Source: Oxalobacter sp. (lineage in GTDB: Bacteria; Pseudomonadota; Gammaproteobacteria; Burkholderiales; Burkholderiaceae_D). Taken from it: 55,004 bases of DNA. Shown here in pieces: positions 2 through 30,190 of the stretch (position 1 is the first letter of the stretch; every line of letters begins with the position of its first letter). The notes below the pieces were generated by a model, which was not told the DNA's origin, made no database searches, and worked only from the letters and a program-made list of their open reading frames with translations. Location: the NCBI GenBank assembly GCA_017524145.1, contig JAFWUI010000008.1:1-55004 (forward strand), in the 5' to 3' direction. Both the position numbers and the translations under genes were made by a program.

Positions 2-187
2 CAGGGTAAATATGAAGAACTGATTAGCTTCGTCACCGACCGTCCGGGACATGACTTCCGTTATGCGATAGATGCGTCAAAGCTCGAAAGGGAGCTCAAG
101 TGGAAAGCTGATGAGAACTTCGAGACGGGCATTGTCAAGACGGTGGATTGGTATCTGGATGATGGGGATTGGAATGGGTCTTTTTAA
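2..187 (+). CDS. rfbB: dTDP-glucose 4,6-dehydratase, C-terminal end (partial)
   Basis: Only the last 61 codons are present; the gene enters from the left edge. The frame reads through [20 protein letters not shown] and ends [19 protein letters not shown] before TAA at 185-187. The DRPGHD.RYAID..K and GI.KTV.WYL signatures are those of the RmlB/RfbB short-chain dehydratase C-terminus. The enzyme makes dTDP-4-keto-6-deoxyglucose, an early step of dTDP-L-rhamnose and related deoxysugars, in the cytoplasm. The rest of the rfb operon presumably lies to the left. The downstream glycosyltransferase start overlaps this gene's end, suggesting co-transcription. A longer reading frame from 72 overlaps it out of frame and its first ~34 residues are not real. 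Confidence 0.88.
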
Positions 188-3380: not shown

Positions 3381-3517
3381 TAAGATTGAGATTATCTTTC
3401 TGCTGTAATGGATATGTAACCATTCTCTAGAATTAGTACATGTAAAATTGTAGCTCTCCTGAATCAAAAGACCGGAAATAAAGCAATCAAGAATCAGCGT
3501 CTCACAGTTACTGAACA

Positions 3518-3556
3518 GGCATTGTCAAGACGGTTCTGTGGTATTTATTAAGTTGA
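3518..3556 (+). pseudogene. rfbB 3'-end remnant (second copy)
   Basis: The 183-bp gap before the next gene is otherwise featureless, but it contains a 17-base perfect match (GGCATTGTCAAGACGGT) to the end of rfbB near 127-144. In frame it reads GIVKTVLWYLLS and stops at TGA 3554-3556, matching [10 protein letters not shown] of the rfbB C-terminus. It is therefore a leftover of another rfbB copy, not chance. Upstream bases 3381-3517 show no recognisable coding content. The remnant argues that the first glycosyltransferase gene was inserted between rfbB and the following gene, or that rfbB-linked modules were shuffled. Confidence 0.7.
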
Positions 3557-3564
3557 AAATAGAT

Positions 3565-5661: not shown

Positions 5662-5693
5662 GTTGGGTTTCCAACACTTTTTTCTTAAACAGA

Positions 5694-8411: not shown

Positions 8412-8446
8412 GCGGGTTGCACTGTATCAAGAACAGCCAGAATTAT

Positions 8447-9646: not shown

Positions 9647-9684
9647 TTTTTTAGCAGGAAGAAATAGAATATTAGGAGAATGTG

Positions 9685-12117
9685 TTGAATATTTGGGGTA
9701 TACAGAGGGATTTTTTAGAAATTCCTGTGGTATTTGTATCAGATGATAACTATGCCCAACATCTTGGGGTTGCCATCAATTCCATTATCAAGAATAAGTT
9801 TATTGAAGATAGGCTTTGTATTTATGTCATTGATGATGGGATTTCAGAACAAAACCGTAAGAAATTAGACGCTTTAATTGGTAATAGTCCTGATATTAAA
9901 CTCTATTACCTGTATATTGAAAAGGAACGATTCTCTAGATTTAGCTTGAATGGAATCCATTATACAAAAGCAGTCTATTATCGTTATCTTATTCCTTCAT
10001 TGATAAAAGAAGATAAAGTTATTTACCTTGATTCTGATATTGTTGTACGTTGCTCTCTTCGAAATCTTTATCTGGAAGATATTGAAGATTGTTATTTTGC
10101 AGGATGTGCTGATTTCAAATATGATGAACATATAAAGAGATTAGGTTTACTGAAATATTGTAATGCTGGAGTCATGCTCATTAACGCAAAAAGATGGCGT
10201 GAAGAGAATATTTCGGACAAACTGATGCAGTTTACGGAGGATTATCCTGAAAAGCTGTTGTTCAATGATCAGGATACCTTGAATGTTATATTACAAGATG
10301 GTATCAAGTACCTTGATAAAAGATGGAATGCTTTAGCCAGTGCATATTCAATAGCCTATTTCAATGATGTGGCTGACACAGCATTTATCATTCATTACAC
10401 AACTCATAAAAAACCATGGACACCGGGTAGCATGAGCCCGATGAAGCATGAATATTTCAGATATTTAAGGAATACACCATGGCAATCCAAGAAACTCATC
10501 GTATCGCTGACATCCTATCCAGCAAGGATATCCTGTGTTCCGCAAGTGCTTAAGACAATATTCAATCAGACCTTATTGCCTGACGAGATTGTTTTATGGC
10601 TTGGCAAGGACCGTTTCCCCAATCGACTGGCTGATTTACCAGAAGAGCTGAAGAACTTTATCGAGAAGGGAGAGCTGACAATCAGATGGGTTCAGGATAT
10701 AGGTCCGCATACCAAGTATTTTTATGCTTTTAAAGAATATCCTGATGCCCTGCTCATCACGGTAGATGATGATATCCTGTACCAAGAAACAATAATTGAA
10801 TCGCTTTATCAGTCGTATCTCCAGCATCCAAATGCTGTTTCTGCATCAAGAGCAAGGTTGATTGGGATTTCTGATGATGGATTGTTCTTTCCGTTCAATG
10901 ATTGGCTATTGCTAGGGGGAGTTGAGGATAATACTGTGGATTTGATGCCATCGATGTCTTTCTTGGCAGAAGGTGTTGAGGGGTGTCTATATCCAACAGG
11001 TCTGTTTGAAGGAATCCGAGAAGATTTATTGGATATCCCTGCTATCCAGAGAACTTGTCCAAACAATGATGATTTGTGGCTGAAAGTCATGCAGCTTGTC
11101 GCAGATATTCCTGTTGTTGTGACAAAGGGACAGAAACGGAGATATGTTCCAGAAAGCCAAGAGTTGGGATTATGGCGTTACAACGTGCTAAAAGGCGGCA
11201 CAGATTATGAATGGTCGTTAATCCAGAAAGAAATTGACAGGCGTTATGGGAAAGCTTTTTTATGGAAAAAGCTGAATGAGCCACCTGTAGGAAAGAATTA
11301 CCTGCTTAGGGAAAATCTATACCAGTTTTTGGTCGATGAGCTGAATAAATATGATGTTGTTGTTAAGAAAGTCAATCGATCCTATGCTAAATACAGCACC
11401 CTGCGCATCGATATCCGCAACAGGGGTAAAGAAGGCGGCTACATCCAGGAAGAGTTGGTTGATCCCCCGCCCAGCCGCTTGGTCCGTCCATCATGGCTGC
11501 CGGATGGTGTGAGCATCGAATCCACAGCGGAGAACATGAAGGTTGCCTTGCGTTGTCAGGGAGAAGGAGAACTGGATATCCGTCTGCGGGGGCGTGATGA
11601 GCGTAATGAAGATGGCAGGCGTTATCCGGTGTGGATAGACTGCACGTATTTTGCGGTCAATGGAGAGGTTGTCTTCGAAGGGGCAAAGACCATCTGTCAT
11701 GACCGTCCTTACATCTACAGGAGACCGGTCAAGGATGGTGAGGTCGTTGAGCTGTCATTCCGCTGGAGTGAATGCCGTTCCAACACAGTTTTGGAAGAGA
11801 CCTTTCGGTTACAGTCGGAGGTGAAGGCATTGCGCGGGAAGGTGAAGGAAACAGAAAGCAAGGCATTGCAGCTACAGGATGCCATCACGGAAAGCGTGCG
11901 TCTGTCATCAGAGACAGCTAGCCAGAAGAAGGTCTTGGAGAAACAGAAGAAACGCCTGTCACAGATTATATCGCAGATGCAGGGCTTCCGTATGGGGTCC
12001 TACCTGAAATACAAGGTGCTATCGAAGCTGACATTTGGAGATATGCGCAGTCGTTATCGTGTGAAGTACCAAGAACAGAAAAAAATATATCGGAAAATCA
12101 AAAAAGGTTCCCGGTAA
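9685..12117 (+). CDS. GT8 + second glycosyltransferase fusion with coiled-coil tail
   Basis: About 810 residues. TTG 9685 is preferred over GTG 9682 because AGGAGA at 9674-9679 then has a 5-base spacing. Residues ~10-260 are a GT8 domain (VVFVSDDNYAQHLGVAINS, YLDSDIVVRCSL with DxD, CNAGVMLINAKRW). Residues ~268-560 are a second transferase type (KLIVSLTSYPARIS, DEIVLWLGKDRFP, LITVDDDILYQE). Residues ~565-700 look like a beta-rich accessory domain (LDIRLRGRDERNEDG, YPVWIDCTYFAVNG), seen in other bacterial polysaccharide transferases. A predicted coiled coil (~708-770) and a 37-residue tail (from 12004) shared with the preceding protein follow. It is the last gene of the cassette. GC rises markedly from about 11400, another mosaic sign. 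Confidence 0.83.
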   Translation: MNIWGIQRDFLEIPVVFVSDDNYAQHLGVAINSIIKNKFIEDRLCIYVIDDGISEQNRKKLDALIGNSPDIKLYYLYIEKERFSRFSLNGIHYTKAVYYRYLIPSLIKEDKVIYLDSDIVVRCSLRNLYLEDIEDCYFAGCADFKYDEHIKRLGLLKYCNAGVMLINAKRWREENISDKLMQFTEDYPEKLLFNDQDTLNVILQDGIKYLDKRWNALASAYSIAYFNDVADTAFIIHYTTHKKPWTPGSMSPMKHEYFRYLRNTPWQSKKLIVSLTSYPARISCVPQVLKTIFNQTLLPDEIVLWLGKDRFPNRLADLPEELKNFIEKGELTIRWVQDIGPHTKYFYAFKEYPDALLITVDDDILYQETIIESLYQSYLQHPNAVSASRARLIGISDDGLFFPFNDWLLLGGVEDNTVDLMPSMSFLAEGVEGCLYPTGLFEGIREDLLDIPAIQRTCPNNDDLWLKVMQLVADIPVVVTKGQKRRYVPESQELGLWRYNVLKGGTDYEWSLIQKEIDRRYGKAFLWKKLNEPPVGKNYLLRENLYQFLVDELNKYDVVVKKVNRSYAKYSTLRIDIRNRGKEGGYIQEELVDPPPSRLVRPSWLPDGVSIESTAENMKVALRCQGEGELDIRLRGRDERNEDGRRYPVWIDCTYFAVNGEVVFEGAKTICHDRPYIYRRPVKDGEVVELSFRWSECRSNTVLEETFRLQSEVKALRGKVKETESKALQLQDAITESVRLSSETASQKKVLEKQKKRLSQIISQMQGFRMGSYLKYKVLSKLTFGDMRSRYRVKYQEQKKIYRKIKKGSR

Positions 12118-12127
12118 GCTATTGTAT

Positions 12128-12150
12128 GGCTTATTAAGAATCAGATAACA
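12128..12150 (+). pseudogene. Remnant matching the pgi 5' coding region
   Basis: The bases TAAGAATCAGATAACA at 12135-12150 recur exactly at 12345-12360 inside pgi, with similar TGG.TTAT bases just before. The upstream copy reads WLIKNQIT against LDYSKNQIT in pgi. A 16-base exact repeat 210 bp apart plus flanking similarity is unlikely by chance. It suggests that the downstream edge of the cassette was joined through a partial pgi copy. The rest of 12118-12189 shows nothing else. Confidence 0.5.
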
Positions 12151-12189
12151 TGCATAATTTAAGAGATTCTTCATATATTCTGAAATCCA

Positions 12190-13830
12190 ATGGATAAAAC
12201 TCTTCCTCAGACAACAATCTATAGGCAATTGTTATTTTTCGCTTCTCAGCTGAATAATTATCCTATCAAGTCTCTGTTCCAGTTAGAGGCCACACGTTTC
12301 CCAAACATGACAGTTTCTACTGGCGGATTGATTTTGGATTATTCTAAGAATCAGATAACAGAAGAAATTTTACGGTTGTTGTTGCGGCTGGCTGAGGAAA
12401 GGAATGTTCCAGCTGTACGTGATGCTATGTTTTCAGGCGATAAAATCAATATCAGCGAAAACAGGGCTGTGTTGCATACGGCACTGCGTTCCTCACGCAC
12501 TGAGTCGATTCTAGTCGATGGGGAAGATGTGGTTCCTGAAATTCGGTCTGTATTGAAACGGATGCAATCATTGACATTGAAGATTCATGCAGGTGAATGG
12601 CAGGGGTTTACTGGCAAATGCATCAAAGATGTTATCAATATCGGTATCGGTGGGTCTGATCTTGGTCCTCGTATGGTGGTGACAGCACTGCGGCATTATC
12701 GCCTGCCAAGGGTTTCGGTGCATTTTGTGTCGAATGTTGATGGTCACGATTTGGAATCAGTTCTGAATAAAGTCAATCCAGAAACTACTTTGTTCATTAT
12801 CTCATCCAAATCATTCACGACTAAAGAAACTGTCTTGAATGCACAATCTGTCCGTAGGTGGTTTCTGGATGCAGGGGCGGAAGTTTCAGATATCAAGAAG
12901 CACTTTGTTGCGGTGACCGCCAATGTTGATGTTGCGGAATCATTTGGCATCCCTGCCGAAAACATCTATCCGATATGGGATTGGGTTGGAGGGCGTTATT
13001 CGGTATGGTCGGCAATTGGATTGCCAGTGATGCTGGCGGTTGGTGTCAACCATTTCATGGAATTGCTATCTGGTGCCCATGCAATGGATGTGCATTTCAA
13101 GTATGCGCCGCTTGACCATAATATGCCAGTTTTATTGGCTTTGATTGGTATATGGAACCGGAATTTTCTAGGCTATCATACATTGGCAGTTGCTCCTTAT
13201 CATGAGGATCTTTTTGTTTTTTCCCGTTGGTTGCAGCAACTTGAGATGGAAAGCAATGGCAAAAGTGTCCAGAAGGATGGTGAGCCGGTTTCTTATGGCA
13301 CTGCACCGATTATTTTGGGGAATACAGGTACCAATGGACAGCATTCTTATTTCCAGCTTTTCCATCAGGGAACAGACATCTGTCCGGTTGATTTCATTGC
13401 TGTACTGAAACCTACCCATTCATTTGATAAGCACCACGAACAGCTCCTTGCCAATTGCTTTGCCCAGGCTGAGGCGTTGATGCGGGGGGCTGATCCGCAG
13501 AAAGCCAAGGAATATATGCTTGCCAAGGGGATTCCTGCTGAACGGGTTGAATCACTGCTCAAGCAGACGCAGTTTGAAGGCAACCGTCCTAGCAATATGA
13601 TTGTGATGAATGAACTCCGTCCAGAAACACTAGGAGCGTTGATGGCGCTTTATGAACACAAGGTGTTTGTCCAAGGGGTTATCTGGAACATCAACAGTTT
13701 TGACCAGTGGGGGGTTGAACTGGGTAAGGCACTCGCGACCAATATCCATAAGGAACTTACTGGTGAGGCAGTTTATGAACATGACAGTTCAACCACGGGA
13801 CTGATTGAATTGGCAAAGGCAGGTCTCTGA
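12190..13830 (+). CDS. pgi: Glucose-6-phosphate isomerase
   Basis: 546 residues, typical length for the family. It interconverts glucose-6-phosphate and fructose-6-phosphate in the cytoplasm. Recognisable blocks are INIGIGGSDLGPRMV (phosphate-binding loop), ISSKSFTTKETVLNA, GGRYSVWSAIGLPVML (PGI signature 1), GTNGQHSYFQLFHQGT with the catalytic region, and SFDQWGVELGK near the C-terminus (signature 2). Here it sits between the polysaccharide cassette and LPS core genes, so it may mainly balance hexose-phosphate supply for sugar nucleotides: glucose-6-P for the dTDP-sugar branch and fructose-6-P for the mannose branch (manB/manC nearby). The start ATG 12190 follows a 72-bp gap containing a remnant of the gene itself. 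Confidence 0.97.
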   Translation: MDKTLPQTTIYRQLLFFASQLNNYPIKSLFQLEATRFPNMTVSTGGLILDYSKNQITEEILRLLLRLAEERNVPAVRDAMFSGDKINISENRAVLHTALRSSRTESILVDGEDVVPEIRSVLKRMQSLTLKIHAGEWQGFTGKCIKDVINIGIGGSDLGPRMVVTALRHYRLPRVSVHFVSNVDGHDLESVLNKVNPETTLFIISSKSFTTKETVLNAQSVRRWFLDAGAEVSDIKKHFVAVTANVDVAESFGIPAENIYPIWDWVGGRYSVWSAIGLPVMLAVGVNHFMELLSGAHAMDVHFKYAPLDHNMPVLLALIGIWNRNFLGYHTLAVAPYHEDLFVFSRWLQQLEMESNGKSVQKDGEPVSYGTAPIILGNTGTNGQHSYFQLFHQGTDICPVDFIAVLKPTHSFDKHHEQLLANCFAQAEALMRGADPQKAKEYMLAKGIPAERVESLLKQTQFEGNRPSNMIVMNELRPETLGALMALYEHKVFVQGVIWNINSFDQWGVELGKALATNIHKELTGEAVYEHDSSTTGLIELAKAGL

Positions 13831-13841
13831 ATATTTAGAAA

Positions 13842-13863
13842 TTTCAAAGATATTCCTTTGAAA
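13842..13863 (+). other. Perfect 8-bp hairpin after pgi
   Basis: TTTCAAAG at 13842-13849 and CTTTGAAA at 13856-13863 form a perfect stem with a 6-base loop, 11 bp after the pgi stop. No T-run follows on the plus strand, so it is at best a weak or Rho-assisted terminator or an mRNA 3'-end stabiliser. The rest of the 129-bp gap shows nothing clear. Confidence 0.35.
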
Positions 13864-13959
13864 AAGTGTCTGGTTGGATTTTGTATTAAGCTTTTGGGCA
13901 AGTTAAAATTGTCCATCTTATCAGTATGATTTCGATTTCAGAGACAAGCTTGATTTGAC

Positions 13960-14781
13960 ATGTCGCGCATCTTGGTATTGGAAGAACCGTTTCGTACGCT
14001 GTGGAAAGACAAGGATCCATTCGAAGAAGTGGAAAAGATTTCCGGTGATGTCAGGCGTGCGGTTGAAAACAGGAAAACATTACGGTTTGTAGTGGCTGGT
14101 AAAGGATATTATCTGAAACTGCATCATGGTACTGAGTTCAAGGAAGTCGTTAAAAGCCTGATCCGTTTACGTCTTCCAGTCTTAGGTGCAGACCGGGAAT
14201 GGAATGCCATCCACCGTCTGGCTGAGCATGGTGTGGACACAATGGAAGGGGTTGCTTATGGTGAACAGGGAAACGATCCGTTGAAGAAAACTTCCTTTAT
14301 TATCACCAAGGATTTAGGACGGACTTGGAGTACCCGCCAGTTCTTTCTGGAAGCGAAGCCTTCTTTTTCTGTTAAATGTTTGGTCATCCGGCGTATTGCC
14401 AGAATGGTCAGGCAGATGCATGCCTGTGGCATCAATCATCGGGATTGTTATCTGGTTCATTTCTTGATACATAGGCCATTCAATACCCAGCATGGTCAGG
14501 AAAAAGATTTGAAAATCTCCATTATCGATTTGCATCGTGCCCAGTTGCGGGATGAGGTTCCGATGAGATGGCGCGATAAGGATTTGATTGGATTGTTGTT
14601 TTCAGCCAGAGAATTGAAGAATATATCAAAACTGGATGTATTCCGTTTTATGAAAGAATATTTCCAATGTTCCTTAAGGGAAATCTTCAGAAAAGAGAAT
14701 GCTTTGATTTCTTCTGCTGGGCGTCGGATTGCCCGTATGGAACGTCATCAGATAAGCCTGAAGAAACGCCGTCATGTGTAA
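13960..14781 (+). CDS. waaP: Lipopolysaccharide core heptose kinase (WaaP/RfaP family)
   Basis: 273 residues, close to the usual ~265. WaaP kinases phosphorylate heptose I of the LPS inner core on the cytoplasmic side of the inner membrane. The sequence has the protein-kinase-like fold hallmarks: VVAGKGYYLKLHHG (nucleotide-binding strand region with lysine), GINHRDCYLVHFL (catalytic loop, aspartate in HRD) and IIDLHRAQLR (the DFG-equivalent metal site). Twenty-one bp separate it from the following glycosyltransferase, so the two probably form an LPS-core unit. The symbol is by family; the exact heptose position phosphorylated is inferred. Confidence 0.9.
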   Translation: MSRILVLEEPFRTLWKDKDPFEEVEKISGDVRRAVENRKTLRFVVAGKGYYLKLHHGTEFKEVVKSLIRLRLPVLGADREWNAIHRLAEHGVDTMEGVAYGEQGNDPLKKTSFIITKDLGRTWSTRQFFLEAKPSFSVKCLVIRRIARMVRQMHACGINHRDCYLVHFLIHRPFNTQHGQEKDLKISIIDLHRAQLRDEVPMRWRDKDLIGLLFSARELKNISKLDVFRFMKEYFQCSLREIFRKENALISSAGRRIARMERHQISLKKRRHV

Positions 14782-14802
14782 TCTGTTTCTGTAAGTTCTT
14801 AA

Positions 14803-16125
14803 ATGCCTTATAAAAAGACAAAACAGGGTCTGGAGAAGTCAGTTTTTCCCTTAGTGAAAGAGGTACTGTTACCGAATTTCAGGAAACGGTTGTATCTGGC
14901 GGGGATTCCGCTTGGCAACCAGCATCGTGAGCCTTTGACAGCAGTTCAGGCAAAACAGGCGTTTCAGCGACGCAAGCCAGATGGTCATCCCCGTATTTAC
15001 CTGAATCTCAGTGCGGTGGCTTATATAGATAACCGTTCTGGTATCCCCCGTGTGGTCAAGAGTCTGGCGAAGGAAGGAATTCTTTCTGAAAAGGCTGTCT
15101 TGATTCCTGTCTATGCAGACCTTGAGACCGGGGTGTTCAAGGTGGCAAAGGCATTTTCTTTATCATTGTGTGGGAAAACATTATCTGTTCAGGAAGATGT
15201 GATGGCTGTGGCTTCTGGAGATGTCTTCCTGAATGTGACCGTCAATCCGAATGAGCTGGCATTTGAGCATGAGACCTTTCAAGCGATGCGGGCGGTTGGT
15301 GTCAGGGTCTTATGTGTGGTGCATGACCTGATTGCGGTCCTGCAGCCTGAGTTTTCGCGTGACAGGGATACCCGTCACCTTAATGATTGGCTGCATCGTA
15401 TCATCCAGTATGATGGGGTGGTTGCCAATTCCCAAGCAACACTGTCTGCTTTTGAGACTTGGATTGAACGTGAGCAGATTGCCTTGCCTTTTGGTTTCCA
15501 GAAACACTGGTTCTATCTAGGGGCGGATATGCAGACAGATGTTTCAGATGTTGATGCCTGTGATGATAAAGAGGTGATGGCTGTCACGCAGGGCTCAATG
15601 CCATATTTCCTGCAGGTGGGAACAGTGGAGTTGCGTAAAGGACATGATGACCTGCTGGATGGTTTTGAAAAGCTCTGGACTGAGGGGATTCAACTGGCAT
15701 TGGTGATTGTCGGACGGCGTGGTTGGAAAGTTCAGCAGGTCAGCAGCAGGATGCTCAAGCATGTTGAATTCGGTAAGCGGTTGTTCTGGTTCCGCAATGC
15801 GGATGATGCAGCACTTCATTGCCTTTACCGTCATGCAGAAGCTGTTGTATTGGCTTCCAAGGCAGAAGGGTATGGTCTTCCTGTGGCGGAAGGTGCTTGG
15901 TTTGGTAGGCCACTGCTGCTGAGGGATTTGTCGATTTTCAAAGAAATCGCCCAAGAAGGTGCAACTTATTTTTCAGGAGGTGGCGTTGAACTGGCGCAGT
16001 CAGCGAAGGTTCTGCACGAAAAGATTGCACAAGGACAGCCTGTTCCTATGCCGAAACCCAATCAGTTCCCAAACTGGAAGCAGAGCTTTGATATGCTGGT
16101 GTCAAAACTGTTGGCTGGTCATTGA
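14803..16125 (+). CDS. Family 4 glycosyltransferase
   Basis: 440 residues, a GT-B fold GT4 enzyme. RIYLNLSAVAYIDNRSGIPR opens the acceptor half (GIPR glycine-rich turn). VLCVVHDLIAVLQPEF, VVANSQATLSAFE, YFLQVGTVELRKGHDDLLDG and AEAVVLASKAEGYGLPVAEG, with the E-x7-E pattern, make the donor half. This resembles mannosyl- or rhamnosyltransferases of O-antigen and capsule loci; the exact sugar is not determinable. Its location after waaP and convergent, 9 bp apart, with the GDP-mannose genes suggests a GDP-mannose or rhamnose donor. Codon use is more like the core genome than that of the cassette at 174-11400. Confidence 0.88.
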   Translation: MPYKKTKQGLEKSVFPLVKEVLLPNFRKRLYLAGIPLGNQHREPLTAVQAKQAFQRRKPDGHPRIYLNLSAVAYIDNRSGIPRVVKSLAKEGILSEKAVLIPVYADLETGVFKVAKAFSLSLCGKTLSVQEDVMAVASGDVFLNVTVNPNELAFEHETFQAMRAVGVRVLCVVHDLIAVLQPEFSRDRDTRHLNDWLHRIIQYDGVVANSQATLSAFETWIEREQIALPFGFQKHWFYLGADMQTDVSDVDACDDKEVMAVTQGSMPYFLQVGTVELRKGHDDLLDGFEKLWTEGIQLALVIVGRRGWKVQQVSSRMLKHVEFGKRLFWFRNADDAALHCLYRHAEAVVLASKAEGYGLPVAEGAWFGRPLLLRDLSIFKEIAQEGATYFSGGGVELAQSAKVLHEKIAQGQPVPMPKPNQFPNWKQSFDMLVSKLLAGH

Positions 16126-16134
16126 GATTTGTTG

Positions 16135-17490
16135 TTAGTCTCCATGTCTGATTTGTTCCAGCAGTTCTTTGGTTTTCTTTTCCATCAAGCGGATATTGCC
16201 CCTGCTTTCTACGTTCAAGCGTAATACAGGTTCGGTGTTGGAACCTCTAAGGTTGAAGCGCCAGTTTGGGAAGGCGATGGATAGTCCATCGATTTTCGAG
16301 ACTTGGGCATTAGGCAGAGAAGTATAAATCTGTTCAATTTTCCTGATGGTTGAAGGAATATCCTCGACAGTGGAATTGATTTCTCCACTGCATGGGAACG
16401 CTTCTTGATATTGTGCAACGCACTCAGATAGGTTTTTTCCAGAATCACTGAGAAGCTGAACAACCAGCAGCCAGGTAATCATGCCAGAGTCGCAATAGGC
16501 GAAATCCCTAAAGTAATGGTGTGCACTCATTTCTCCACCATAGAGGGCATTTTCAGCACGCATCCGTTCTTTGATGAACGCATGACCAGTCTTTGATTCA
16601 ATGGCTGTCCCTCCTGCTTTTTTGACGGTTGCTTGGGTGTTCCAGACCAAACGTGGGTCATGGATGATTTTTGCGTGGGGATTGGTTTTCAGCAGTGCTT
16701 CTGCAATCATGCCAACCAGATAATAGCCTTCGATGAAGTCTCCTTTTTCATCAAAGAAGAAGCAACGGTCAAAATCGCCGTCCCAGGCAATGCCTAAATC
16801 AGCATGGCTCTCAATGACGGCTTTTGCTGTGGCTTCACGGTTTTCTAGAAGCAATGGGTTGGGAACTCCGTTAGGGAAGGTTCCATCAGGTTCGCTTTGG
16901 ATGATGGTGATGTTTAATGGCAGGCGTGCCGCCAGTTCTTGCATGACAAGTCCTGCACAGCCGTTGCCAGGGTTGGCGATGATTTTCAGTGGCTTCAGGG
17001 TTTCTGGTTTGATATAGCCCAATAGGTGGTCTATATAGTCTTTACGGAATGATGCTTTGGTAAAAGAGCCTGACAAGGCGTCAGGGATGTCTTGGTGGGA
17101 AGCCATCCGGCCACGGATGGCAAAAAGACCTGAATCACCGCTGACGGGGACAGCACCCCGTCGGACAATCTTGAAGCCGTTCTCATCTGCCGGGTTGTGG
17201 CTGCCGGTAATCATGATGCCACCGTCAAAGTCTTTGGCAAACGATGCGAAATAGATTTCTTCTGTTCCACACATGCCGATACCGGTGACATGGACTCCAG
17301 CAGCTTGTAACCCGATGGCTAAAGCCAGATAAAGAGAAGGTCCTGAAAGACGTGCATCATAACCGATAACTACTTTCTTGGCGTTGAATTCCTGTGCAAA
17401 TGCAAAGCCAAGATTACGGGCAAAGTCTGGATTCAGGGTTGAGGGAACTTTGCCGCGGATGTCATAGGCTTTGAAGCCAGATAAATCCAT
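16135..17490 (-). CDS. manB: Phosphomannomutase
   Basis: 451 residues, the normal length for ManB/CpsG/AlgC-type enzymes of the alpha-D-phosphohexomutase family. It converts mannose-6-phosphate to mannose-1-phosphate. The phosphoserine loop is visible as GIMITGSHNPADENGFK, the metal loop as AWDGDFDRCFFFDE, the sugar-binding loop as GGEMSAHHYFRDF, and the C-terminal phosphate-binding loop as LRGSNTEPVLRLNVE. It starts 2 bp after the end of manC on the minus strand, so the two are one transcription unit for GDP-mannose synthesis. The symbol could equally be cpsG or algC; dual phosphoglucomutase activity is possible. Confidence 0.94.
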   Translation of the reverse strand: MDLSGFKAYDIRGKVPSTLNPDFARNLGFAFAQEFNAKKVVIGYDARLSGPSLYLALAIGLQAAGVHVTGIGMCGTEEIYFASFAKDFDGGIMITGSHNPADENGFKIVRRGAVPVSGDSGLFAIRGRMASHQDIPDALSGSFTKASFRKDYIDHLLGYIKPETLKPLKIIANPGNGCAGLVMQELAARLPLNITIIQSEPDGTFPNGVPNPLLLENREATAKAVIESHADLGIAWDGDFDRCFFFDEKGDFIEGYYLVGMIAEALLKTNPHAKIIHDPRLVWNTQATVKKAGGTAIESKTGHAFIKERMRAENALYGGEMSAHHYFRDFAYCDSGMITWLLVVQLLSDSGKNLSECVAQYQEAFPCSGEINSTVEDIPSTIRKIEQIYTSLPNAQVSKIDGLSIAFPNWRFNLRGSNTEPVLRLNVESRGNIRLMEKKTKELLEQIRHGD

Positions 17491-17492
17491 GG

Positions 17493-18954
17493 TTATTTCC
17501 TTTTTCCGATGGTGTTCCGGGCTTCGGTCATGGCAGATTCACTGGTATCTGCACGGCCATAATTGTCTTCAAAGCGCACGATGTCATCTTCTCCCAAGTA
17601 GCTGCCAGTCTGGACTTCAATGAATTCCAAGGGGAGTGGACCTGGATTTTTGATGCGGTGTTTTGTACCAAGCGGGACATACACCGATTCATTTTTCTGC
17701 AATCAGCTTCTGTTCTCCACCGATGGTGACTTCAGCAATTCCCCGAACGATAATCCAATGTTCCGCTCGATGGTAGTGCATCTGAAGTGAATTTTCTGAA
17801 CCAGGATGGACGGTGATGCGTTTTACCTGAAAACCATCAGCAAGGACCAATGTTTCATAGTGTCCCCAAGGTCGATGGACCAATGGATGCAGGTCGGTTT
17901 CTGTTCGGTTGTTGGCTTTCAGCAGGTTGACGATGGCTTTGACATCTTGGGTTTTACTACGGTCTGCAACCAGAACAGCATCTTTCGTTTCGATGACAGC
18001 GAGGTTCCTCACACCAACAGCCGCAATCAGGCGTCCTGTGCTTTTGAGATAACAGCCTGTTGTATCCGAAAGCATTACATCACCTTCGCAGGCATTGCAA
18101 TCGGTGTCTTTGTCAGCGATTTCATAGAAAGATTCCCAGGATCCGAGGTCGCTCCATCCTCCATCCATTGGAACAACCGCGACTTTGTCAGAGTGCTCCA
18201 TAATGGCATAGTCAATGGAATCAGAAGGTGAATCTAAGAACGATGTGCCTGGACGTAGGAAAGACAGGTCTTGATAATGGGTTTGCCAGGCTGTTTTGAC
18301 GGCTTGATAAATGGCTGGCGCATATTTTTCCAGTTCAGTCAGGAAAACAGATGCCTTGAACAGGAAAATGCCTGCATTCCAATAATAACCACCTTCTTTC
18401 AGCATTGCTTCAGCTTTTGCCTTTTGGGGTTTTTCCAAGAAACGTTCTACACAATAGGCGCTTTCTCCCAATGCGTTGCCTTGCTTGATATAGCCATAAC
18501 CGGTTTCAGGACGGATTGGGTTTATGCCAAAAGTAACCAGGTATCCAGCCTCTGCAATGGATTGGGCTGATTCTACAGCCGAACGGAATGCTTCGGGATG
18601 CTCGAACATATGGTCTGATGGCATGACCAGCATCAGCGCATCTTCAGTTTCCATGGTGGCAAAGCCGGCCAGGGCGATTGCGGGGGCAGTATTCCTGCCT
18701 TCGGGTTCCAGGATGATGGTTCCTTTCCGATTGGTGTCTTTAAGGCATTCGTCAATGTAAAAACGGTATTCATTGTTACTGATGACCATGACGTCCAGTG
18801 TTTGATGAATGCCTTCAATCCTTCTCAGGGTTTCTGCAAACAACGAACTGTTGTTGCCAAATGACATGAATTGTTTCGGGTATTTAGAACGGGAGGCTGG
18901 CCAGAGCCGTGTGCCAGAGCCACCGCATAAAATAACAGGTTGGATATTTGCCAT
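17493..18954 (-). pseudogene. manC: Mannose-1-phosphate guanylyltransferase / mannose-6-phosphate isomerase, frameshifted
   Basis: The first part (18954 down to a TGA at 17689) encodes MANIQPVILCGGSGTRLWPA, the nucleotidyltransferase signature, then GHYETLVLADGFQVKRI and RAEHWIIVRG of the cupin isomerase domain. It stops after EQKLIAEK. The remaining ~66 residues ([35 protein letters not shown]) continue in another frame to 17493. The shift lies at a run of five A (minus strand; T5 at 17692-17696); four A would restore a continuous [10 protein letters not shown]. The guanylyltransferase domain is intact but the isomerase domain loses its C-terminus. ATG 18954 matches family N-termini better than ATG 18978. 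Alternatives are a sequencing error, a natural variant or rare +1 frameshifting. It is upstream of manB in one unit. Confidence 0.88.
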
Positions 18955-19058
18955 AATAGAATCAGATATGGTAGGCATGTCTTGTCAGATGAAGAATATC
19001 CTACCCAATGAATAATGCTTCTGCAACTTAAGCGGATATTATCAGGAACAGCATCAGC

Positions 19059-19092: not shown

Positions 19093-19716
19093 ATGGCTGA
19101 GAAAATTATCACAGTTTCAGATTTGGAACCGTTTGGAAGAGGAGCTCATCGTAAGTGTTTTCCGCATCCAGAAAACCCTAACCAATGTATCAAGGTTATC
19201 TATAATCCATCGACCAGTGCAAAAAAAGAAATTGTCCGGGAACTCAAGTACTATGAAGTGCTGAACCGTAGCCTTAAAGACTGGCGTGGTGTACCGCGTT
19301 ATTACGGTCAGGTTCAGACAGATATTGGCACAGGCTATGTCTATGACCTGATCAAGAATTATGATGGGACACCTGCACCAACATTGAAGCAGATGATGGA
19401 GGAATGCAAAACGGTTGAGGAGGCAGGGAAAATCCTTAGAATATTCAAAAGTCTTAAACAGTACCTTCATGATAACGAAATCCAGACATTGCCGCTCCAG
19501 TCTTACAATATCCTCTGTCAGAAAACAGGTCCAGATGAATACCAGCCTGTTGCCTGCGACAATCTAGGAGAAAGGGCAGGGATTCCTTTGACACGTTGGT
19601 TTACGTTCCTCTGCCATCGGAAACAGGAACGCCGTTGGCGGGTGTTTATGACGACGCCTTCAGTAAAGGCGTTTCTTGAAAAGTTCAACATTGACCCGAA
19701 GACGGTAGGGCGATAA
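19093..19716 (+). CDS. YrbL family protein (first paralogue)
   Basis: 207 residues. The family (PhoP regulatory network protein YrbL) is named from enteric bacteria, where yrbL is in the PhoP/PmrA regulons; its biochemical role is not established, though the fold is protein-kinase-like. Visible features are LEPFGRGAHRKCFPHPENP (glycine-rich start), QCIKVIYNP (the invariant-lysine-like IKV), ELKYYEVLNR and GYVYDLIKNYDGTPAPTL. The middle NILCQKTGPDE..PVACDNLG region resembles a degenerate catalytic and metal segment. A homologous gene lies at 23765-24382 on the other strand, on the far side of the msbA/yejM pair. No signal peptide, so cytoplasmic. Confidence 0.85.
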   Translation: MAEKIITVSDLEPFGRGAHRKCFPHPENPNQCIKVIYNPSTSAKKEIVRELKYYEVLNRSLKDWRGVPRYYGQVQTDIGTGYVYDLIKNYDGTPAPTLKQMMEECKTVEEAGKILRIFKSLKQYLHDNEIQTLPLQSYNILCQKTGPDEYQPVACDNLGERAGIPLTRWFTFLCHRKQERRWRVFMTTPSVKAFLEKFNIDPKTVGR

Positions 19717-23764: not shown

Positions 23765-24382
23765 TCAAGCAATCAGTGTTTTCCCATCAATGCCAAATTT
23801 TGTGAGGAATTCAACAACGAGCGGTAACTTGATGAACCGTTCCCAACGTTTCTGCTGTGAGCTGTCTCCGATAGATTGGAACCAGTGGGACCATGGGATG
23901 ACAGAGCTTCTGCCCAGGTTGTCACAGATGACAGGAACCATCTCGAATTCAGAAACACGCCTGCAGAGGACATTATGCGGGTTCATCGTGATGGTCAGGA
24001 TATGATTGTCTCGGATGTACTTTTTCAGTTGAAGGATTAAATCTACGATTTTCTGGGCCTGCTCAGGGGATTCACAGGTTTCTATGATATTTCCCAATGT
24101 GGCAGAGGGAGTACCATCGTAATCCAGTATCAGGTCAAAGACATAGCCGATGCCCATATTGGTCTCAACCGTGCCATGGAATCTGGGGATGCAGCTCCAG
24201 TCTTTCAGGTAGCTGTCAATATGCCTGTAATAGCGCATTTCATGTTTGATGTTGCGCAACTCACTTTTAGTGACTGTGTGAAGGACCTTGATGCATAACT
24301 GCCTGTTTTCTGGATGAGGGTAGCAGCTTCGATGTGCACCGGTGCCTAATGGTGTGCACTGGGATAAATCAATCACTTCCAT
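23765..24382 (-). CDS. YrbL family protein (second paralogue)
   Basis: About 205 residues from ATG at 24380-24382, which has a GGAAG ribosome site 7 bases upstream; a TTG at 24406 is possible but weaker. MEVIDLSQCTPLGTGAHRSC aligns from its first residue with the protein at 19093. Other shared blocks are CIKVLHTVTKSE, YLKDWSCIPRFHG, IGYVFDLILDYDGTPSATL and PHNVLCRRVSEFE..PVICDNLGRSS. It has its own gap to msbA (185 bp) and points the same way. The two paralogues bracketing msbA and yejM suggest a shared role in LPS or envelope stress, but no biochemical function can be assigned from sequence. Confidence 0.85.
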   Translation of the reverse strand: MEVIDLSQCTPLGTGAHRSCYPHPENRQLCIKVLHTVTKSELRNIKHEMRYYRHIDSYLKDWSCIPRFHGTVETNMGIGYVFDLILDYDGTPSATLGNIIETCESPEQAQKIVDLILQLKKYIRDNHILTITMNPHNVLCRRVSEFEMVPVICDNLGRSSVIPWSHWFQSIGDSSQQKRWERFIKLPLVVEFLTKFGIDGKTLIA

Positions 24383-24577
24383 CTTTCTTCCATAAACACT
24401 CACCAAGTCAGTTTACTGGCTGGTGTCTGCGGTACGCTTCAAACTAGGTAAAACCATATCTGCACAGTCTATCATTTCTTAAAAAGAGTAAAAAGCAACA
24501 TAGTCTATGCGTTTTTGGATATAGCCGATAATTTTGACTGGACAACATCCACAGTTATGTTTACATTCTTGCCATTG

Positions 24578-24709: not shown

Positions 24710-25318
24710 ATGAAGATTGATGAGGCAAAAAAGGTCCTCGAAGCAGTCCTGTTATGTGCGCAGCAGCCATTGCCCTTGGATGATCTTGTCAGATTGTTTG
24801 TCGATACCGATGACCTGTTTGTCAGGCAGAAAAAGGATGCCGTCTCTTCATCCATGACTGCACAGCGTTGCCGTCAGCTGCTTTATGACCTGCAGTATGA
24901 TTGGTCAGACAGGGGGCTTGAATTGGTCTGCCTGCCAGATGGATGGCGGTTCCAGAGCCGGTCAGAGATGAAGCCTTATTTCGACAGGCTGAGACAGGAA
25001 AAGCCTTTGCGGTACAGTCGGGCAACAATGGAAATCTTGGCGGTGATTGCCTATAGCCAGCCTGTGACCCGGGGGGATATCGAACAGATCCGCGGTGTGG
25101 CGGTCAATACCCAGTCCATCCGTACATTGGAGGAGCGTGGATGGATAGAAGTCATTGGACATCGTGAAGCGCCAGGCAGGCCGGCATTGTTTGCAACCAC
25201 ATCGCAGTTTCTTGATGACCTTGGTTTGCAGTCGCTTCAAGAACTGCCGCCATTAGAAGAACTGAGGGAGGCGGATCTGTTGCAGCCAGAACTTGATCTC
25301 GGTCAGAAAACTGAATGA
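24710..25318 (+). CDS. scpB: Segregation and condensation protein B
   Basis: 202 residues, typical of ScpB. It is the winged-helix subunit that joins ScpA and SMC in bacterial condensin. The start [20 protein letters not shown] matches the family N-terminus; [20 protein letters not shown] and [20 protein letters not shown] are the second winged-helix core, ending in [20 protein letters not shown]. The stop overlaps the rluB start by 4 bases (ATGA), a translational coupling common for scpB-rluB. Confidence 0.94.
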
Positions 25319-26679
25319 ATAGCATACAGGCAACTGCATGGATAGAACCGGTGTTGCCGAAATTGATGAAAACCAAGATGGATATAAACGAAGAAATGGA
25401 AACACTAAAGACAGACAGTGCTTCTGAAAAAATGGAAACCGTAATGGGAAAAATGCAGGTCGATGGGAAGTCTGCTAAAGCCAGTGTGAAAAAAAGCAGG
25501 CCAGTACGTAAAGCCCCCCGCCAGGGACAGAAAAAAGCTGCAGTTGCTGACAGTCCAGACGATGTTTTCAAATATGTGACTTCTGGTTCCTTCGATCAGG
25601 AAAACGGCGTCCAGTCAGAGAAAGATGTCCTGAAACAGAAAAAGGTCAGGCGTGAGTTGACCGCTGAGGACGATGCCCCAAAACTGCATAAAGTGCTGGC
25701 AGAGGCGGGATTGGGGTCACGCCGTGATATGGAAGAGCTGATTGTTGCAGGTCGGGTCTCTGTCAACGGAGAACCTGCCCATATCGGTCAGCGGATTCTG
25801 CCAACGGATCAGGTCCGTTTCAATGGCCGGTTAATTCAACGCAAAGTCACCAAATCATTGCCTAAAGTGCTTATCTACCATAAACCGGCAGGGGAGATTG
25901 TCAGCCGTGATGATCCAGAAAGACGGCCCTCTGTCTTTGATGGGTTGCCAAACCTGCGGAACAGTAAATGGTTGGCGGTTGGGCGTTTGGATTTCAACAC
26001 AGAGGGATTACTGCTGTTCACCAATTCCGGTGACCTGGCAAACCGCCTGATGCATCCCCGTTACAACATCGACCGGGAATATGCTGTCCGTACATTGGGG
26101 GAATTGGATGAGGGTTCCCGCCAAAAACTGTTGGCGGGTGTGGAACTGGACGATGGTCTTGGACAGTTCACCAAGATAGCAGATGGTGGCGGTGAAGGGG
26201 TCAACCGCTGGTACCGTGTCACCATCGGTGAAGGCCGTAACCGGGAAGTCCGCCGTATGTTTGAAGCCGTCGGTTTAACGGTTTCCAGACTGATTCGGAC
26301 CCGTTATGGCGCATTGACTTTGCCCAAGACCCTGAAACGGGGGCGTTGGGAAGAACTTGAAGCCAATGATGTCCGTAGCCTGCTCCGCTTGTGTGGTATG
26401 GAAATCAAGAAAACGTCTGATGATGCCAGTGCCCGTAAAGGCAGGAAAGCGGTTGGTTTCCCCAAAAAAGCTCCAGCCGGTGAATATGCCCAGGAATCTG
26501 TGGGATTCCGCAAGGGCAGGGGTTCTTCAGCACAGAAGACCCATGGAAGCCGTCAGCCGGACCCTCTCCAGACATCTTATGGCTATATGGGCGCAGGTCA
26601 GAAAGGCAGGAGTGTTCAGAAGCAACGGAATCAGGAGAACCGTCTTGGACAAGGTGTTCCTCGCCGACGTGCAATTTAA
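25315..26679 (+). CDS. rluB: 23S rRNA pseudouridine synthase (RluB family)
   Basis: 454 residues, longer than E. coli RluB (~290). It isomerises U2605 (E. coli numbering) in 23S rRNA. Residues ~1-120 are a polar, basic, repeat-poor leader ([20 protein letters not shown]). The S4 RNA-binding domain follows ([20 protein letters not shown], ~120-165). The catalytic block is [20 protein letters not shown] with its aspartate; INREYAVR-like and [16 protein letters not shown] blocks follow. The last ~85 residues ([17 protein letters not shown]) are again basic and probably disordered. It overlaps scpB by 4 bases. Later in-frame ATGs (e.g. residue 15) are possible starts. Confidence 0.92.
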
Positions 26680-26714: not shown

Positions 26715-28764
26715 ATGGCTGAAAAGAGGCATTACCAGGCAAGTGATGATATAATTAAAAATTCTGCCATCAAGAAATCATCAATAGGTTGGCGTTCTGA
26801 CATAGGTGGTTTGCGTGCTCTGGCGGTCTTCGCCGTCTTTGTCTTCCATGCTTTCCCAAAAGTACCAGTCTTCAAAGGCGGCTTTGTTGGTGTTGATGTC
26901 TTCTTCGTCATCTCCGGTTTCCTGATTTCTTCTATCATCTACACCCAGCTTGCCAAGGGCACCTTCAGCTTCTGGGATTTCTACAGCCGCCGTATCCGGC
27001 GCATCTATCCGGTCCTGCTGACCGTCCTTATCGGTTGCTTGGGATTCGGCTGGTTCTTTCTTCTTGCCGATGAATACATGCAGCTCAGCAAACACATAGC
27101 CGGTGGAGCAGGGTTCGTTTCCAACTTCGTGCTCTTTTTTGAGAAAGGCTATTTCGATAATGCTTCTGCAACAAAACCCTTACTCCATCTCTGGAGTCTG
27201 GGGATTGAAGAACAGTTCTACATCTTCTGGCCACTTATTCTTTGGTTGACTTGGAAACTCAAAAAGAATGCCATGTTCTGGGTGGCATTGGTCATTGCAA
27301 CAGTATCCATGGCAATGAACCTCTACTGGTTCAAGTCCAACCCCAGCATGGACTTTTTCCTGCCTCATACGCGGGTATGGGAACTGTTATGCGGTGCGAT
27401 ACTTGCATGGGGCAATCTCAACTGGAAAGAAAAGATAGTCGGGAAAGTCAAGGATATACGGGGGGGGGGATATCCTGCCCCATATCCTTTCAGTGACAGG
27501 ATTCGCCTTACTCGTAGTATCCATCATCTTCATGCAGGAAAAAGGCTTTCCGGGCTGGCAGGCAACCATCCCGATAGCAGCCACAGTCTTAATCATCATG
27601 GCAGGGAAAGACGCCATCCTCAACAGATGGATTCTGTCCAACAAAGTATTGGTCTGGTTTGGTCTCATCAGTTATCCGATGTACTTGTGGCATTGGCCGC
27701 TGATATCCATGGCTCGCATTGTCAAATCAGAGCCGCCGCCTGCTATTTATTGTGTATGTGCATTTCTTGCCTGCACCGTCTTGGCATGGCTGACGACAAA
27801 ACTCATTGAGAATCCGTTGAGGTTTGGTGAATATGGAAAGGCAAAGACCATCGGATTGTTCTTGGTGATGATGGCATTGGGAGGGACTGGATATGTTCTC
27901 TTTACAAAACAAGGAATACCTCGTCGATGGGAAAGCCAAAAGCAGATAGATGAAAAATCCAAGATTTCTAAGCTAGTTGAACAATCTCAGAGTAAGTGTA
28001 GAGCAGTTTTTCCTGAATGGGAAAAGAAAACCAATGCTTGTTATTTCCAGAATGAGGATGGGAGAAATACCATTGCATTGGTTGGTGATTCGCACGTTGG
28101 ACATTTGTTTCCAGGATTAATACAAGTTACAAAAGAAAATGAAGGTATTGTTGTTTTTCCAGCATCTTGTGCAACTCCATTTATCGATATAATAGCAGCA
28201 GCGAAAGACAACCCAAGAAGACAAAATAACTGGCAATTGCATCGCGATGCCTATAAATATATTTTTGAACATCCAGAAATAAAAACTGTTGTACTTGGTC
28301 ATCACCCAGGATGTTCTTTTTATGATGTAATTGACCGTCAAAACCCAAAAGAAAAAGATAAAAACAAAATCATGGAAAATGGGATTCGAAGGACTTTTGA
28401 CATCCTGCAAGAAAAAGGCAAGAAAGTATTGATTGTTTTGGATAATCCTAATTTGAATTTTGAACCTAAAAGCTGTATTGCGCGTCCCTTTATAACACCA
28501 TTTCGAGGTGTTTTTAGAAAAGATATCCACAGTAAGGAAAAATCTATTGTTTCTTACAATGAACGTATTATTAATATTTCTAAAGAATATCCTAACATAT
28601 CAATTATTGATTTATCCGAATATTTTTGTGATTCGAAAAATTGCTATGCAGTAAAGAATAAAAAATTATTATACAAAGATAGAAACCATCTTAATTATGA
28701 CGGTTCTCTTTATGTTGCACCTGCAATTATGGAAAAAATCAGGGAGATTTCTAGGAATCATTGA
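26715..28764 (+). pseudogene. OafA-type O-acyltransferase (AT3 + SGNH), split by a G10 tract: phase-variable, OFF here
   Basis: The acyltransferase-3 half (WRSDIGGLRALAVFAVFVFH, GFVGVDVFFVISGFLISSII, LLHLWSLGIEEQFYIFWPL) is read from 26715. Its frame leaves the family at the poly-G run 27460-27469 and ends spuriously at 27809. The correct continuation (ILSVTGFALLVVSIIFMQEK, FGLISYPMYLWHWPL, then the SGNH domain ALVGDSHVGHLFPG and KDRNHLNYDGS) is in the next frame to 28764. Nine G (or twelve) would give one 682-residue protein with about ten membrane helices and a periplasmic SGNH domain. Such proteins acetylate O-antigen or peptidoglycan sugars; the target here is unknown. Bases from ~27950 on are AT-rich. 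A G10 assembly error cannot be excluded. Confidence 0.85.
27460..27469 (+). repeat. Homopolymeric G10 tract (phase-variation switch)
   Basis: Ten consecutive G inside the acyltransferase reading frame. Homopolymer runs of this length slip readily during replication and are the standard switch of contingency loci. Here G10 puts the SGNH half out of frame; G9 or G12 restores it. Confidence 0.85.
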
Positions 28765-28812: not shown

Positions 28813-29451
28813 TCAGGCACCGCCTGTTTTATCTGGGAATTCACAAAGGTCTTTCAACAGGCAGCCAGCACAGTTGAATGATTTTGCCTTACAGACATAA
28901 CGTCCATGCAGCAGCAGCCAATGGTGTGCATTGAGCAGATAAGCTTCAGGCACGGTTTCCAGCAGGCGTTTTTCCACCTCCAGCACGTTTTTGCCTGGGG
29001 CGATGCCTGTCCGGTTGGCAACCCTGAAAATATGGGTGTCAACAGCCATTGTCGGTTGGTTGAATGCGGTGTTCAGGACAACATTGGCTGTTTTCCTGCC
29101 AACGCCCGGCAATGCTTCCAGGTCTTGACGGTTGTCTGGCACCTGTCCGGCATGTTTTGCCAGCAGGATTTCTGACATCTTGATGATGTTCTTGGCTTTG
29201 GTTGGATACAGGTTGATGGTTTTCACATATTCTTTCAAAGCCTCCACACCCAATGCGACGATGTCCTCAGGGGTATTGGCTACAGGGTACAGTTTCTCGG
29301 TCGCTTTGTTGACAGAAATGTCGGTCGCCTGTGCGGAAAGGATGACGGCAACCAGCAGTTCGTAGGGGGTCTTGAATTTCAGTTCTGAACGGGGTGAAGG
29401 GCGGTCAGCTTTCAACCGTTCAAAAATCTGGATGATCTTTTCTGGAGACAT
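28813..29451 (-). CDS. nth: Endonuclease III
   Basis: 212 residues when started at ATG 29449-29451 (MSPEKIIQIFERLKADRP), which matches the usual family N-terminus and length. An earlier ATG at 29553 would add 34 residues and overlap rsxB. It is a bifunctional DNA glycosylase/AP lyase for oxidised pyrimidines. Visible are LPGVGRKTANVVL (helix-hairpin-helix with catalytic lysine), VDTHIFRVANR (catalytic aspartate) and a C-x6-C-x2-C-x5-C cluster ligand set (CKAKSFNCAGCLLKDLC) for [4Fe-4S]. It lies 80 bp after the rsxB end on the same strand; rsx/rnf-nth linkage is common in proteobacteria. Confidence 0.95.
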   Translation of the reverse strand: MSPEKIIQIFERLKADRPSPRSELKFKTPYELLVAVILSAQATDISVNKATEKLYPVANTPEDIVALGVEALKEYVKTINLYPTKAKNIIKMSEILLAKHAGQVPDNRQDLEALPGVGRKTANVVLNTAFNQPTMAVDTHIFRVANRTGIAPGKNVLEVEKRLLETVPEAYLLNAHHWLLLHGRYVCKAKSFNCAGCLLKDLCEFPDKTGGA

Positions 29452-29530
29452 GGCGTTTACAGGCTGATATAGGGCATCAATGGATGACATCATGCCATGT
29501 TTTGGAAGAATCTGCTGATAACGGTCCCAA

Positions 29531-30190
29531 TCACTTTCCGGTTTGGATGCCAAAGGCTTTCAATCTGGCCCGGGCACGCTCAATGGCTTTGCGGACCAAG
29601 GCGGATTTCCTTGCAGATGAAGGCATTGGCAGAGGCGCATTGTCAGTTGATGGCAATGGTCTATCAGTGTTGCTGTGCAATCTGGCGAGTTTCCGTTCAT
29701 AGCGGAGCCGTGCGTTATTTGCCTGTGTTTCAGACCAGGCATCCCAACCGGTCAGATTTCCTGATACGTTATGCAAGGAGATGGCATCCAATGGACAGCG
29801 GGGAACACATTGACCGCATCCTGTGCAGAAGTCTTGGACAACGGTATGCATCATGCCAGACGCACCGATGATGGCATCCGTCGGGCACATCCTGATGCAG
29901 ATGGTGCAGCCGATACAGGCAGATTCATCAATGGTTGCAGAGGAACGGGGGGATTCTTCCCCATAAGCAGTGTCAAGTAAAGGTTCATCAACATCCAGCA
30001 GGGCTGCAAGCTGGTGAATGCCTTTCTGTCCTCCTGCTGCACAACGGTTGATATCAGCCTCCTGATGGGCTATGGCTTCGGCATAAGACCTGCAGGAGAC
30101 ATAGCCACAATGGGTACATTGTGTCTGTGGCAACAGGGCAAGGATTTTTTCTGTCAAAGCATCTGGAGACGTGGGATTGGAATCTGTCAT
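29531..30190 (-). CDS. rsxB: RsxB/RnfB-like ferredoxin
   Basis: 219 residues from ATG 30188-30190; a TTG at 30211 would start inside a terminator hairpin. The first domain holds a C-x2-C-x4-C..C cluster (LPQTQCTHCGYVSC, then INRCAAGG), the second holds two ferredoxin-type [4Fe-4S] motifs (CIGCTICIRMCPTDAI and CTGCGQCVPRCPLDAI). RnfB of E. coli starts with a membrane anchor; here no hydrophobic segment precedes the clusters, so it is probably soluble. No other rnf/rsx gene is nearby. It sits upstream of nth and downstream of a ferredoxin reductase gene; it may pass electrons from that or another donor, for example in redox sensing or Fe-S upkeep. This role is inference. Confidence 0.88.
   Translation of the reverse strand: MTDSNPTSPDALTEKILALLPQTQCTHCGYVSCRSYAEAIAHQEADINRCAAGGQKGIHQLAALLDVDEPLLDTAYGEESPRSSATIDESACIGCTICIRMCPTDAIIGASGMMHTVVQDFCTGCGQCVPRCPLDAISLHNVSGNLTGWDAWSETQANNARLRYERKLARLHSNTDRPLPSTDNAPLPMPSSARKSALVRKAIERARARLKAFGIQTGK

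What the first reader, a model, noticed from the sequence alone, without database searches (positions are those of the whole stretch)
26715..28764. Phase-variable O-acyltransferase switched by a G10 tract
An OafA-type acyltransferase is intact except for a run of ten G at 27460-27469 that puts the second half out of frame; nine G would fuse the halves into one 682-residue AT3+SGNH protein. Both halves match the family up to the tract, so no other lesion is needed. Long G runs are classic slipped-strand switches for surface modification. The gene lies in the same 30-kb stretch as the polysaccharide cassette, so the switch could toggle acetylation of LPS or capsule.
Basis: partly seen in the sequence, partly recalled or inferred. 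Interest (0 to 1): 0.75.

Follow-up and report, generated by a model that had tools for sequence, protein, structure and literature searches.

The report
G-run on/off switch in sugar acyltransferase
In a gut Oxalobacter genome, a gene for an enzyme that probably decorates surface sugars is split at a run of ten Gs, and related genes in the genus carry runs of other lengths, which points to a random on/off switch of a kind well known in other bacteria.

Summary
Ten G at 27460-27469 separate two frames that together match one AT3-SGNH (OafA/OafB-type) acyltransferase in an Oxalobacter genome. The closest relative has the gene open, with an eight-G run at the same codon site; the two homology blocks in the window meet inside the run. 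Run length alone is not beyond chance genome-wide (0.71 runs of 10 or more expected, one seen). Position and comparison are the evidence: 5 of 9 Oxalobacter AT3 genes carry a G/C run of 8-17, against 1 of 91 homologous loci elsewhere. A glycosyltransferase gene in two other Oxalobacter genomes is broken with C9 and open with C10, with no other frame-changing difference. The silent half keeps 9 of 9 invariant residues. Best reading: slipped-strand phase variation of a surface-glycan acyltransferase, captured OFF. Reversibility, catalysis and target are inferred; no reads or second isolate of the species were available. Two other Oxalobacter AT3 genes are interrupted by lesions that are not a G/C run, so ordinary gene loss remains a rival. 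New member of a known kind; no report for Oxalobacter turned up in the library searches made.

The parts
26715..27458 (+). First half: AT3 domain, about two thirds of it
   Evidence: PF01757 E 5.4e-21, model 4-205; 83% identical to L001 over residues 17-247; keeps 56 of 57 invariant columns
27460..27469 (+). Run of ten G at the frame change; in the relative L001 the matching codons fall in a Lys/Arg-rich loop just before a hydrophobic segment
   Evidence: Sequence; blocks of the relative meet here; hydropathy of L001; loop variable among relatives
27470..27809 (+). Out-of-frame tail of the first ORF, predicted end of a 364-aa truncated product
   Evidence: ORF list
27472..28764 (+). Second half in another frame: rest of the AT3 domain, then the SGNH domain
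   Evidence: PF01757 217-325 (30.3 bits, just under the cut-off of 31) and PF19040 E 1e-34; 56% identical to L001 over residues 246-671; keeps 9 of 9 invariant columns
25315..26679 (+). Upstream neighbour: pseudouridine synthase (S4 + PseudoU_synth_2)
   Evidence: Pfam
28813..29553 (-). Downstream neighbour: endonuclease-III-like HhH-GPD protein
   Evidence: Pfam

Best explanation
The gene encodes an AT3-SGNH acyltransferase that most likely adds acetyl or another short acyl group to a surface glycan. A run of G in the codons of a loop just before a transmembrane segment acts as a slipped-strand switch: changes in run length during replication move the SGNH half in and out of frame, so a population holds cells with and without the enzyme. 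This assembly caught an OFF allele, with a truncated AT3 part and no SGNH domain. Shown here: the frame break at the run; the open relative with another run length at the same site; repeated G/C runs in this gene family in the genus; and a tract-dependent broken/open pair in another glycan gene. Inferred: reversibility, enzyme activity, glycan target and benefit.
For: Frame change exactly at the run, with both halves matching one family. Open relative with G8 at the same codon site. Runs of 8-17 in 5 of 9 Oxalobacter AT3 genes against 0 of 79 plus 1 of 12 homologous loci elsewhere, Fisher p 1e-5, or 0.002 if only three Oxalobacter events are counted. GT9-like gene broken with C9 in G006 and open with C10 in G007, the run being the only frame-changing difference inside the gene. 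Silent half keeps 9 of 9 invariant columns and shows dN of 0.36 with synonymous sites near saturation. In G010 the gene sits in a rhamnose/LPS-type cluster.
Against: Run length itself is what the genome's own run decay predicts. Two other Oxalobacter AT3 genes are interrupted without a G/C run at the break: G009 has a frame break and G002 an in-frame stop; both are draft genomes 72-76% complete. Three of the nine genes have no run above 5 (G003, G005, G007). The window allele has a private Asp-to-Gly change at an otherwise invariant site. No within-species variation could be looked at. Long runs also occur in other genera of the family. MutS is present in 11 of 13 genus genomes, so lost mismatch repair does not explain the runs.
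Confidence: 0.72

Rival explanations
1. A recent pseudogene: a one-off slip in a mutable G run inactivated a dispensable enzyme, with no selected switching.
For: AT3 genes are patchy (9 of 13 genus genomes); those of G002 and G009 are interrupted by lesions that are not a G/C run; private Asp-to-Gly change in the window; run length within chance for a genome.
Against: No stop in the second half and 9 of 9 invariant columns kept; runs recur in this gene family in the genus; tract-dependent open/broken pair elsewhere in the genus.
Confidence: 0.17
2. An assembly or sequencing error in the homopolymer: the real gene is open.
For: The window is from a draft assembly of 55 contigs, and homopolymers are error-prone (recalled).
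Against: The relative L001, also a metagenome assembly, has a run at the same site with the frame open, so the run itself is real even if its length were wrong; other runs of 9 in this assembly (C27, C35) lie in open frames.
Confidence: 0.07
3. Transcriptional or translational slippage at the run makes some full-length enzyme from this allele, so the gene is expressed at a low level and is not off.
For: Long homopolymers can cause slippage of RNA polymerase (recalled).
Against: The nearest relative is open at the DNA level, and in the GT9 pair DNA run length separates open from broken. Nothing here tests RNA or protein.
Confidence: 0.04

Closest known systems
Haemophilus influenzae oafA, phase-variable LOS O-acetyltransferase
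   Same: An acyltransferase of the AT3 type switched by a simple-sequence repeat tract in the gene (PMC6479036 and PMC9558356, passages).
   Different: There the repeat is GCAA and the switching is measured; here it is a G run, at another place in the gene, with an SGNH domain in the shifted part, and switching is inferred.
Salmonella OafA/OafB, AT3-SGNH O-antigen acetyltransferases
   Same: Same domain architecture, same essential R-X10-H and RXXR motifs (PMC9833829, PMC9558356, passages; here). oafB-type expression is phase variable.
   Different: The phase variation described for oafB is epigenetic (PMC9558356, passage), not a homopolymer; acceptor unknown here.
Campylobacter poly-G/poly-C contingency loci
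   Same: G/C mononucleotide tracts, within and between genes, many on surface-modifying enzymes (abstracts in search listings).
   Different: Here in a betaproteobacterial gut genus with MutS present in 11 of 13 genomes and few runs in the window's genome (3 of 9 or more).

Membership tests
AT3-SGNH acyltransferase gene (PF01757 + PF19040) | AT3 domain over the curated cut-off | tested here: met
   75.4 bits in the first half against 31; the rest of the domain in the second half scores 30.3
AT3-SGNH acyltransferase gene (PF01757 + PF19040) | C-terminal SGNH domain with its Ser and His | tested here: met
   120.8 bits against 27; columns G454, S456 and H649 of the alignment kept
AT3-SGNH acyltransferase gene (PF01757 + PF19040) | Essential R-X10-H and RXXR motifs | tested here: met
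   R31, H42, R90 and R93 columns kept; motifs as given in PMC9833829 (passage)
AT3-SGNH acyltransferase gene (PF01757 + PF19040) | Both domains in one open frame (working protein) | tested here: not met
   Frames differ at the run in this allele; met in the relative L001, 671 aa. The window is filed as a broken or OFF allele of the family, not as a working member
Slipped-strand phase-variable locus | Simple repeat at a frame-setting place in the gene | tested here: met
   G10 at the frame change
Slipped-strand phase-variable locus | Run length and frame state differ between relatives at the same site | tested here: met
   G10 shifted against G8 open in G010; the two genes also differ in the neighbouring codon, so this is between species only
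Slipped-strand phase-variable locus | Reversible length variation within a strain | not testable with these tools
   One genome per species is held and no reads
O-antigen acetyltransferase (OafA/OafB function) | Acetylates an O-antigen or LPS sugar | not testable with these tools
   Neighbourhood in G010 fits; a survey reports no waaL in the O-antigen clusters of O. formigenes (PMC9834719, passage)
Acetyltransferase SucT (NF058601) | Score over the curated cut-off of 1275 bits | tested here: not met
   64.8 and 82.4 bits for the halves, 138.3 for L001

The most novel reading that the evidence does not exclude
Oxalobacter, a gut genus known for oxalate degradation and not as a pathogen (recalled), runs a set of G/C-tract contingency loci acting mainly on surface glycans (AT3-SGNH, GT9-like and sulfatase-type enzymes, a sugar epimerase) and in some species perhaps on a DNA methylase and a hybrid histidine kinase. 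Its surface would then vary at random in the gut, as in Campylobacter or Neisseria, with phage or host selection as the likely driver.
Probability: 0.45. Interest if true: 0.6.

Novelty: new member of a known kind. Interest (0 to 1): 0.45.

Why it matters
If true, a gut bacterium studied for oxalate breakdown and kidney-stone protection (recalled) would have a randomly switching surface, which bears on why colonisation and phage sensitivity differ between strains. It would extend poly-G phase variation to a genus for which the held library gave no report in the searches made.

Tried and rejected
Run length as evidence: rejected, because the genome's own decay of run lengths predicts 0.71 runs of 10 or more. 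Loss of mismatch repair as the cause: rejected as a general explanation, MutS was found in 11 of 13 genus genomes including the window's; the two misses are drafts 62% and 85% complete; MutL was not searched. Conserved glycines as the reason for the run: rejected, the loop is variable in length and sequence among the relatives printed and the other Oxalobacter genes lack it; GGG is 20% of Gly codons in 15 window genes, so two in a row is only mildly unusual. The Asp-to-Gly change as proof of decay: rejected, 14 of 33 relatives break at least one otherwise invariant column. Long runs as a mark of Oxalobacter alone: rejected, 41 of 137 other family genomes have a run of 12 or more G against 5 of 13 in the genus. 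SucT membership: rejected. A solved relative by sequence: none at E 0.001 for either half. A first attempt to read the Asp column on my own alignment hit a wrong column through an N-terminal offset and was redone on alignment A1.

Full report
Host. The first half of the gene finds Oxalobacter sp. MBin.057 (L001) as best named relative at 80% identity; the next is at 61%. Twelve other genomes of the genus are held.

The gene. A + strand ORF from 26715 matches the AT3 domain, and a second ORF in another frame matches the rest of AT3 and an SGNH domain. Between them lie ten G at 27460-27469. The open L001 protein (671 aa) aligns to the window as residues 17-247 in one frame and 246-671 in the next, meeting inside the run. 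The first frame runs on to a stop at 27809, a predicted product of 364 aa without SGNH. The motifs described as essential for the family (R-X10-H and RXXR, PMC9833829; SGNH blocks, PMC9558356; passages seen) are kept. Of the invariant columns of a 33-sequence alignment the first half keeps 56 of 57 and the second 9 of 9; of the nearly invariant ones, 28 of 32 and 25 of 27. Against L001, dN is 0.09 in the first half and 0.36 in the second (0.16 in its AT3 part, 0.45 in the SGNH part), with synonymous sites near saturation. The second half has thus been under protein-level selection for most of its history, which does not exclude a recent loss.

Is the run more than chance? The assembly has 54 G/C runs of 7 or more, 3 of 9 or more and 1 of 10 or more. 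The decay predicts 0.71 of 10 or more per genome and 0.0008 per 2,050 bases. Length alone is unremarkable. That the longest run of the assembly marks the frame change of an otherwise open gene is not.

Comparison within the gene family. Nine of 13 genus genomes have a PF01757 match. Five carry a G/C run of 8 or more in the gene: G000 G10 (shifted), G010 G8 at the same codon site (open), and G011 C14, G008 C17 and G002 C9 near the 5' end, in frame with the domain at the run. The G002 gene has an in-frame stop further on. G003, G005 and G007 have no run above 5, and G009 is broken with no G/C run of 6 or more in the fetched stretch. G007 has CCGCACA four times, about 100 bases upstream of its ORF. 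Outside the genus, 0 of 79 homologous loci (L002-L080; 74 with a frame of 550 aa or more) and 1 of 12 further loci (L085, C8) have a run of 8 or more. Fisher p is 1e-5 for 5 of 9 against 1 of 91, and 0.002 if only three Oxalobacter events are counted. Relatedness among the rows, and possible double records between the two collections, were not corrected. In L001 the run falls in a Lys/Arg-rich loop just before a hydrophobic segment; the loop varies in length and sequence among relatives, so changes there should be tolerated.

Comparison across the genus. There are 73 G/C runs of 9 or more in 13 genomes. I looked at 65 of them; the 8 of G005 and G012 were not fetched. Among these and the L001 run, six sites are shared between two genomes and four of the six differ in length. 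The cleanest is a gene with the glycosyltransferase-9 family match (L180): in G007 it has C10 and a 402-aa frame, in G006 (L171) C9 and two shorter frames. Of 1304 aligned bases 1144 are identical, and the run is the only frame-changing difference inside the gene. This is comparative evidence, in the same genus, of a glycan gene whose frame follows run length. Other runs lie near 5' ends or just before start codons, for example of an outer-membrane efflux protein (L166/L176), an N6 DNA methylase (L148) and a hybrid histidine kinase (L146). Several others lie inside long open frames of ordinary genes, such as a tRNA synthetase (L149) and an RNB-domain protein (L142), and are probably chance. 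Runs of 12 or more G occur in 5 of 13 genus genomes and in 41 of 137 other family genomes, so they are not confined to Oxalobacter; one case (L197) looks like an assembly artefact.

Surroundings. Directly beside the gene are a pseudouridine synthase and an endonuclease-III-like gene. Glycosyltransferase-type genes, a WaaP-family kinase, a phosphomannomutase-type gene and a nucleotidyltransferase/mannose-6-phosphate-isomerase-type gene lie within 72-18978. In G010 the gene sits between RgpF- and RmlD-family genes, in a stretch that also has GT2, nucleotidyltransferase, dTDP-sugar epimerase, dehydratase and WaaP-family genes. The glycan link is therefore good, but the acceptor is open: a survey reports no waaL in the O-antigen clusters of O. 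formigenes (PMC9834719, passages).

Mechanism and standing. Best explanation: slipped-strand phase variation of an AT3-SGNH surface-glycan acyltransferase, here OFF. The anatomy and the between-species evidence are shown; reversibility, activity, target and benefit are inferred. Rivals are a recent pseudogene, an assembly error, and slippage during expression. It works like H. influenzae oafA with its GCAA repeat (PMC6479036, passages) and the Campylobacter G/C tracts (abstracts in listings). In the held library, Oxalobacter with 'phase variation' gave 3 papers and with 'homopolymeric' 4, none with a title on this subject; two or more of Oxalobacter, phase-variable, slipped-strand and contingency loci gave 219 papers, of which the 15 listed do not contain the word Oxalobacter. 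Most subscription papers are not in that library.

Verdict. Observation confirmed; interpretation supported in its mechanism by comparison and untested in its function. A new member of a known kind, of moderate interest, which would rise if reads confirmed the genus-wide picture.

Noticed in passing
L171 (G006) and L180 (G007): GT9-family gene broken with C9 and open with C10; the run is the only frame-changing difference inside the gene.
   Followed up: yes
L143-L147 (G003, one-contig genome): Five G/C runs of 22-26 bases; one is near the 5' end of a hybrid histidine kinase frame (L146), one near that of a GDP-mannose-dehydratase-like frame (L147).
   Followed up: partly
L148 (G003) 2004-3851: C11 at the 5' end of an N6 DNA methylase frame, a possible methylation switch.
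   Followed up: no
L166 (G006) and L176 (G007): C11 and C10 just before the likely ATG of an outer-membrane efflux protein gene, 90% identical flanks; might tune expression by spacing.
   Followed up: partly
L186, L189, L196 (G008): Runs of 12, 14 and 18 with flanks 82-86% alike inside one genome, two of them near contig ends: perhaps a repeated tract-bearing gene family.
   Followed up: no
L132 (G007), gene strand 1263-1290: CCGCACA repeated four times about 100 bases upstream of the AT3-SGNH frame, another repeat type that could switch expression.
   Followed up: no
G001:C1:1701847-1704445: mutS matches as two pieces in separate frames in this one-contig genome.
   Followed up: no
L197 (G002) 1925-2042: G32, G31 and C9 close together with inverted similar flanks; looks like an assembly artefact.
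   Followed up: no
window 19093-19716 and 23765-24406: Two YrbL-family genes on opposite strands flank a sulfatase/DUF3413 gene and an ABC exporter-type gene.
   Followed up: no
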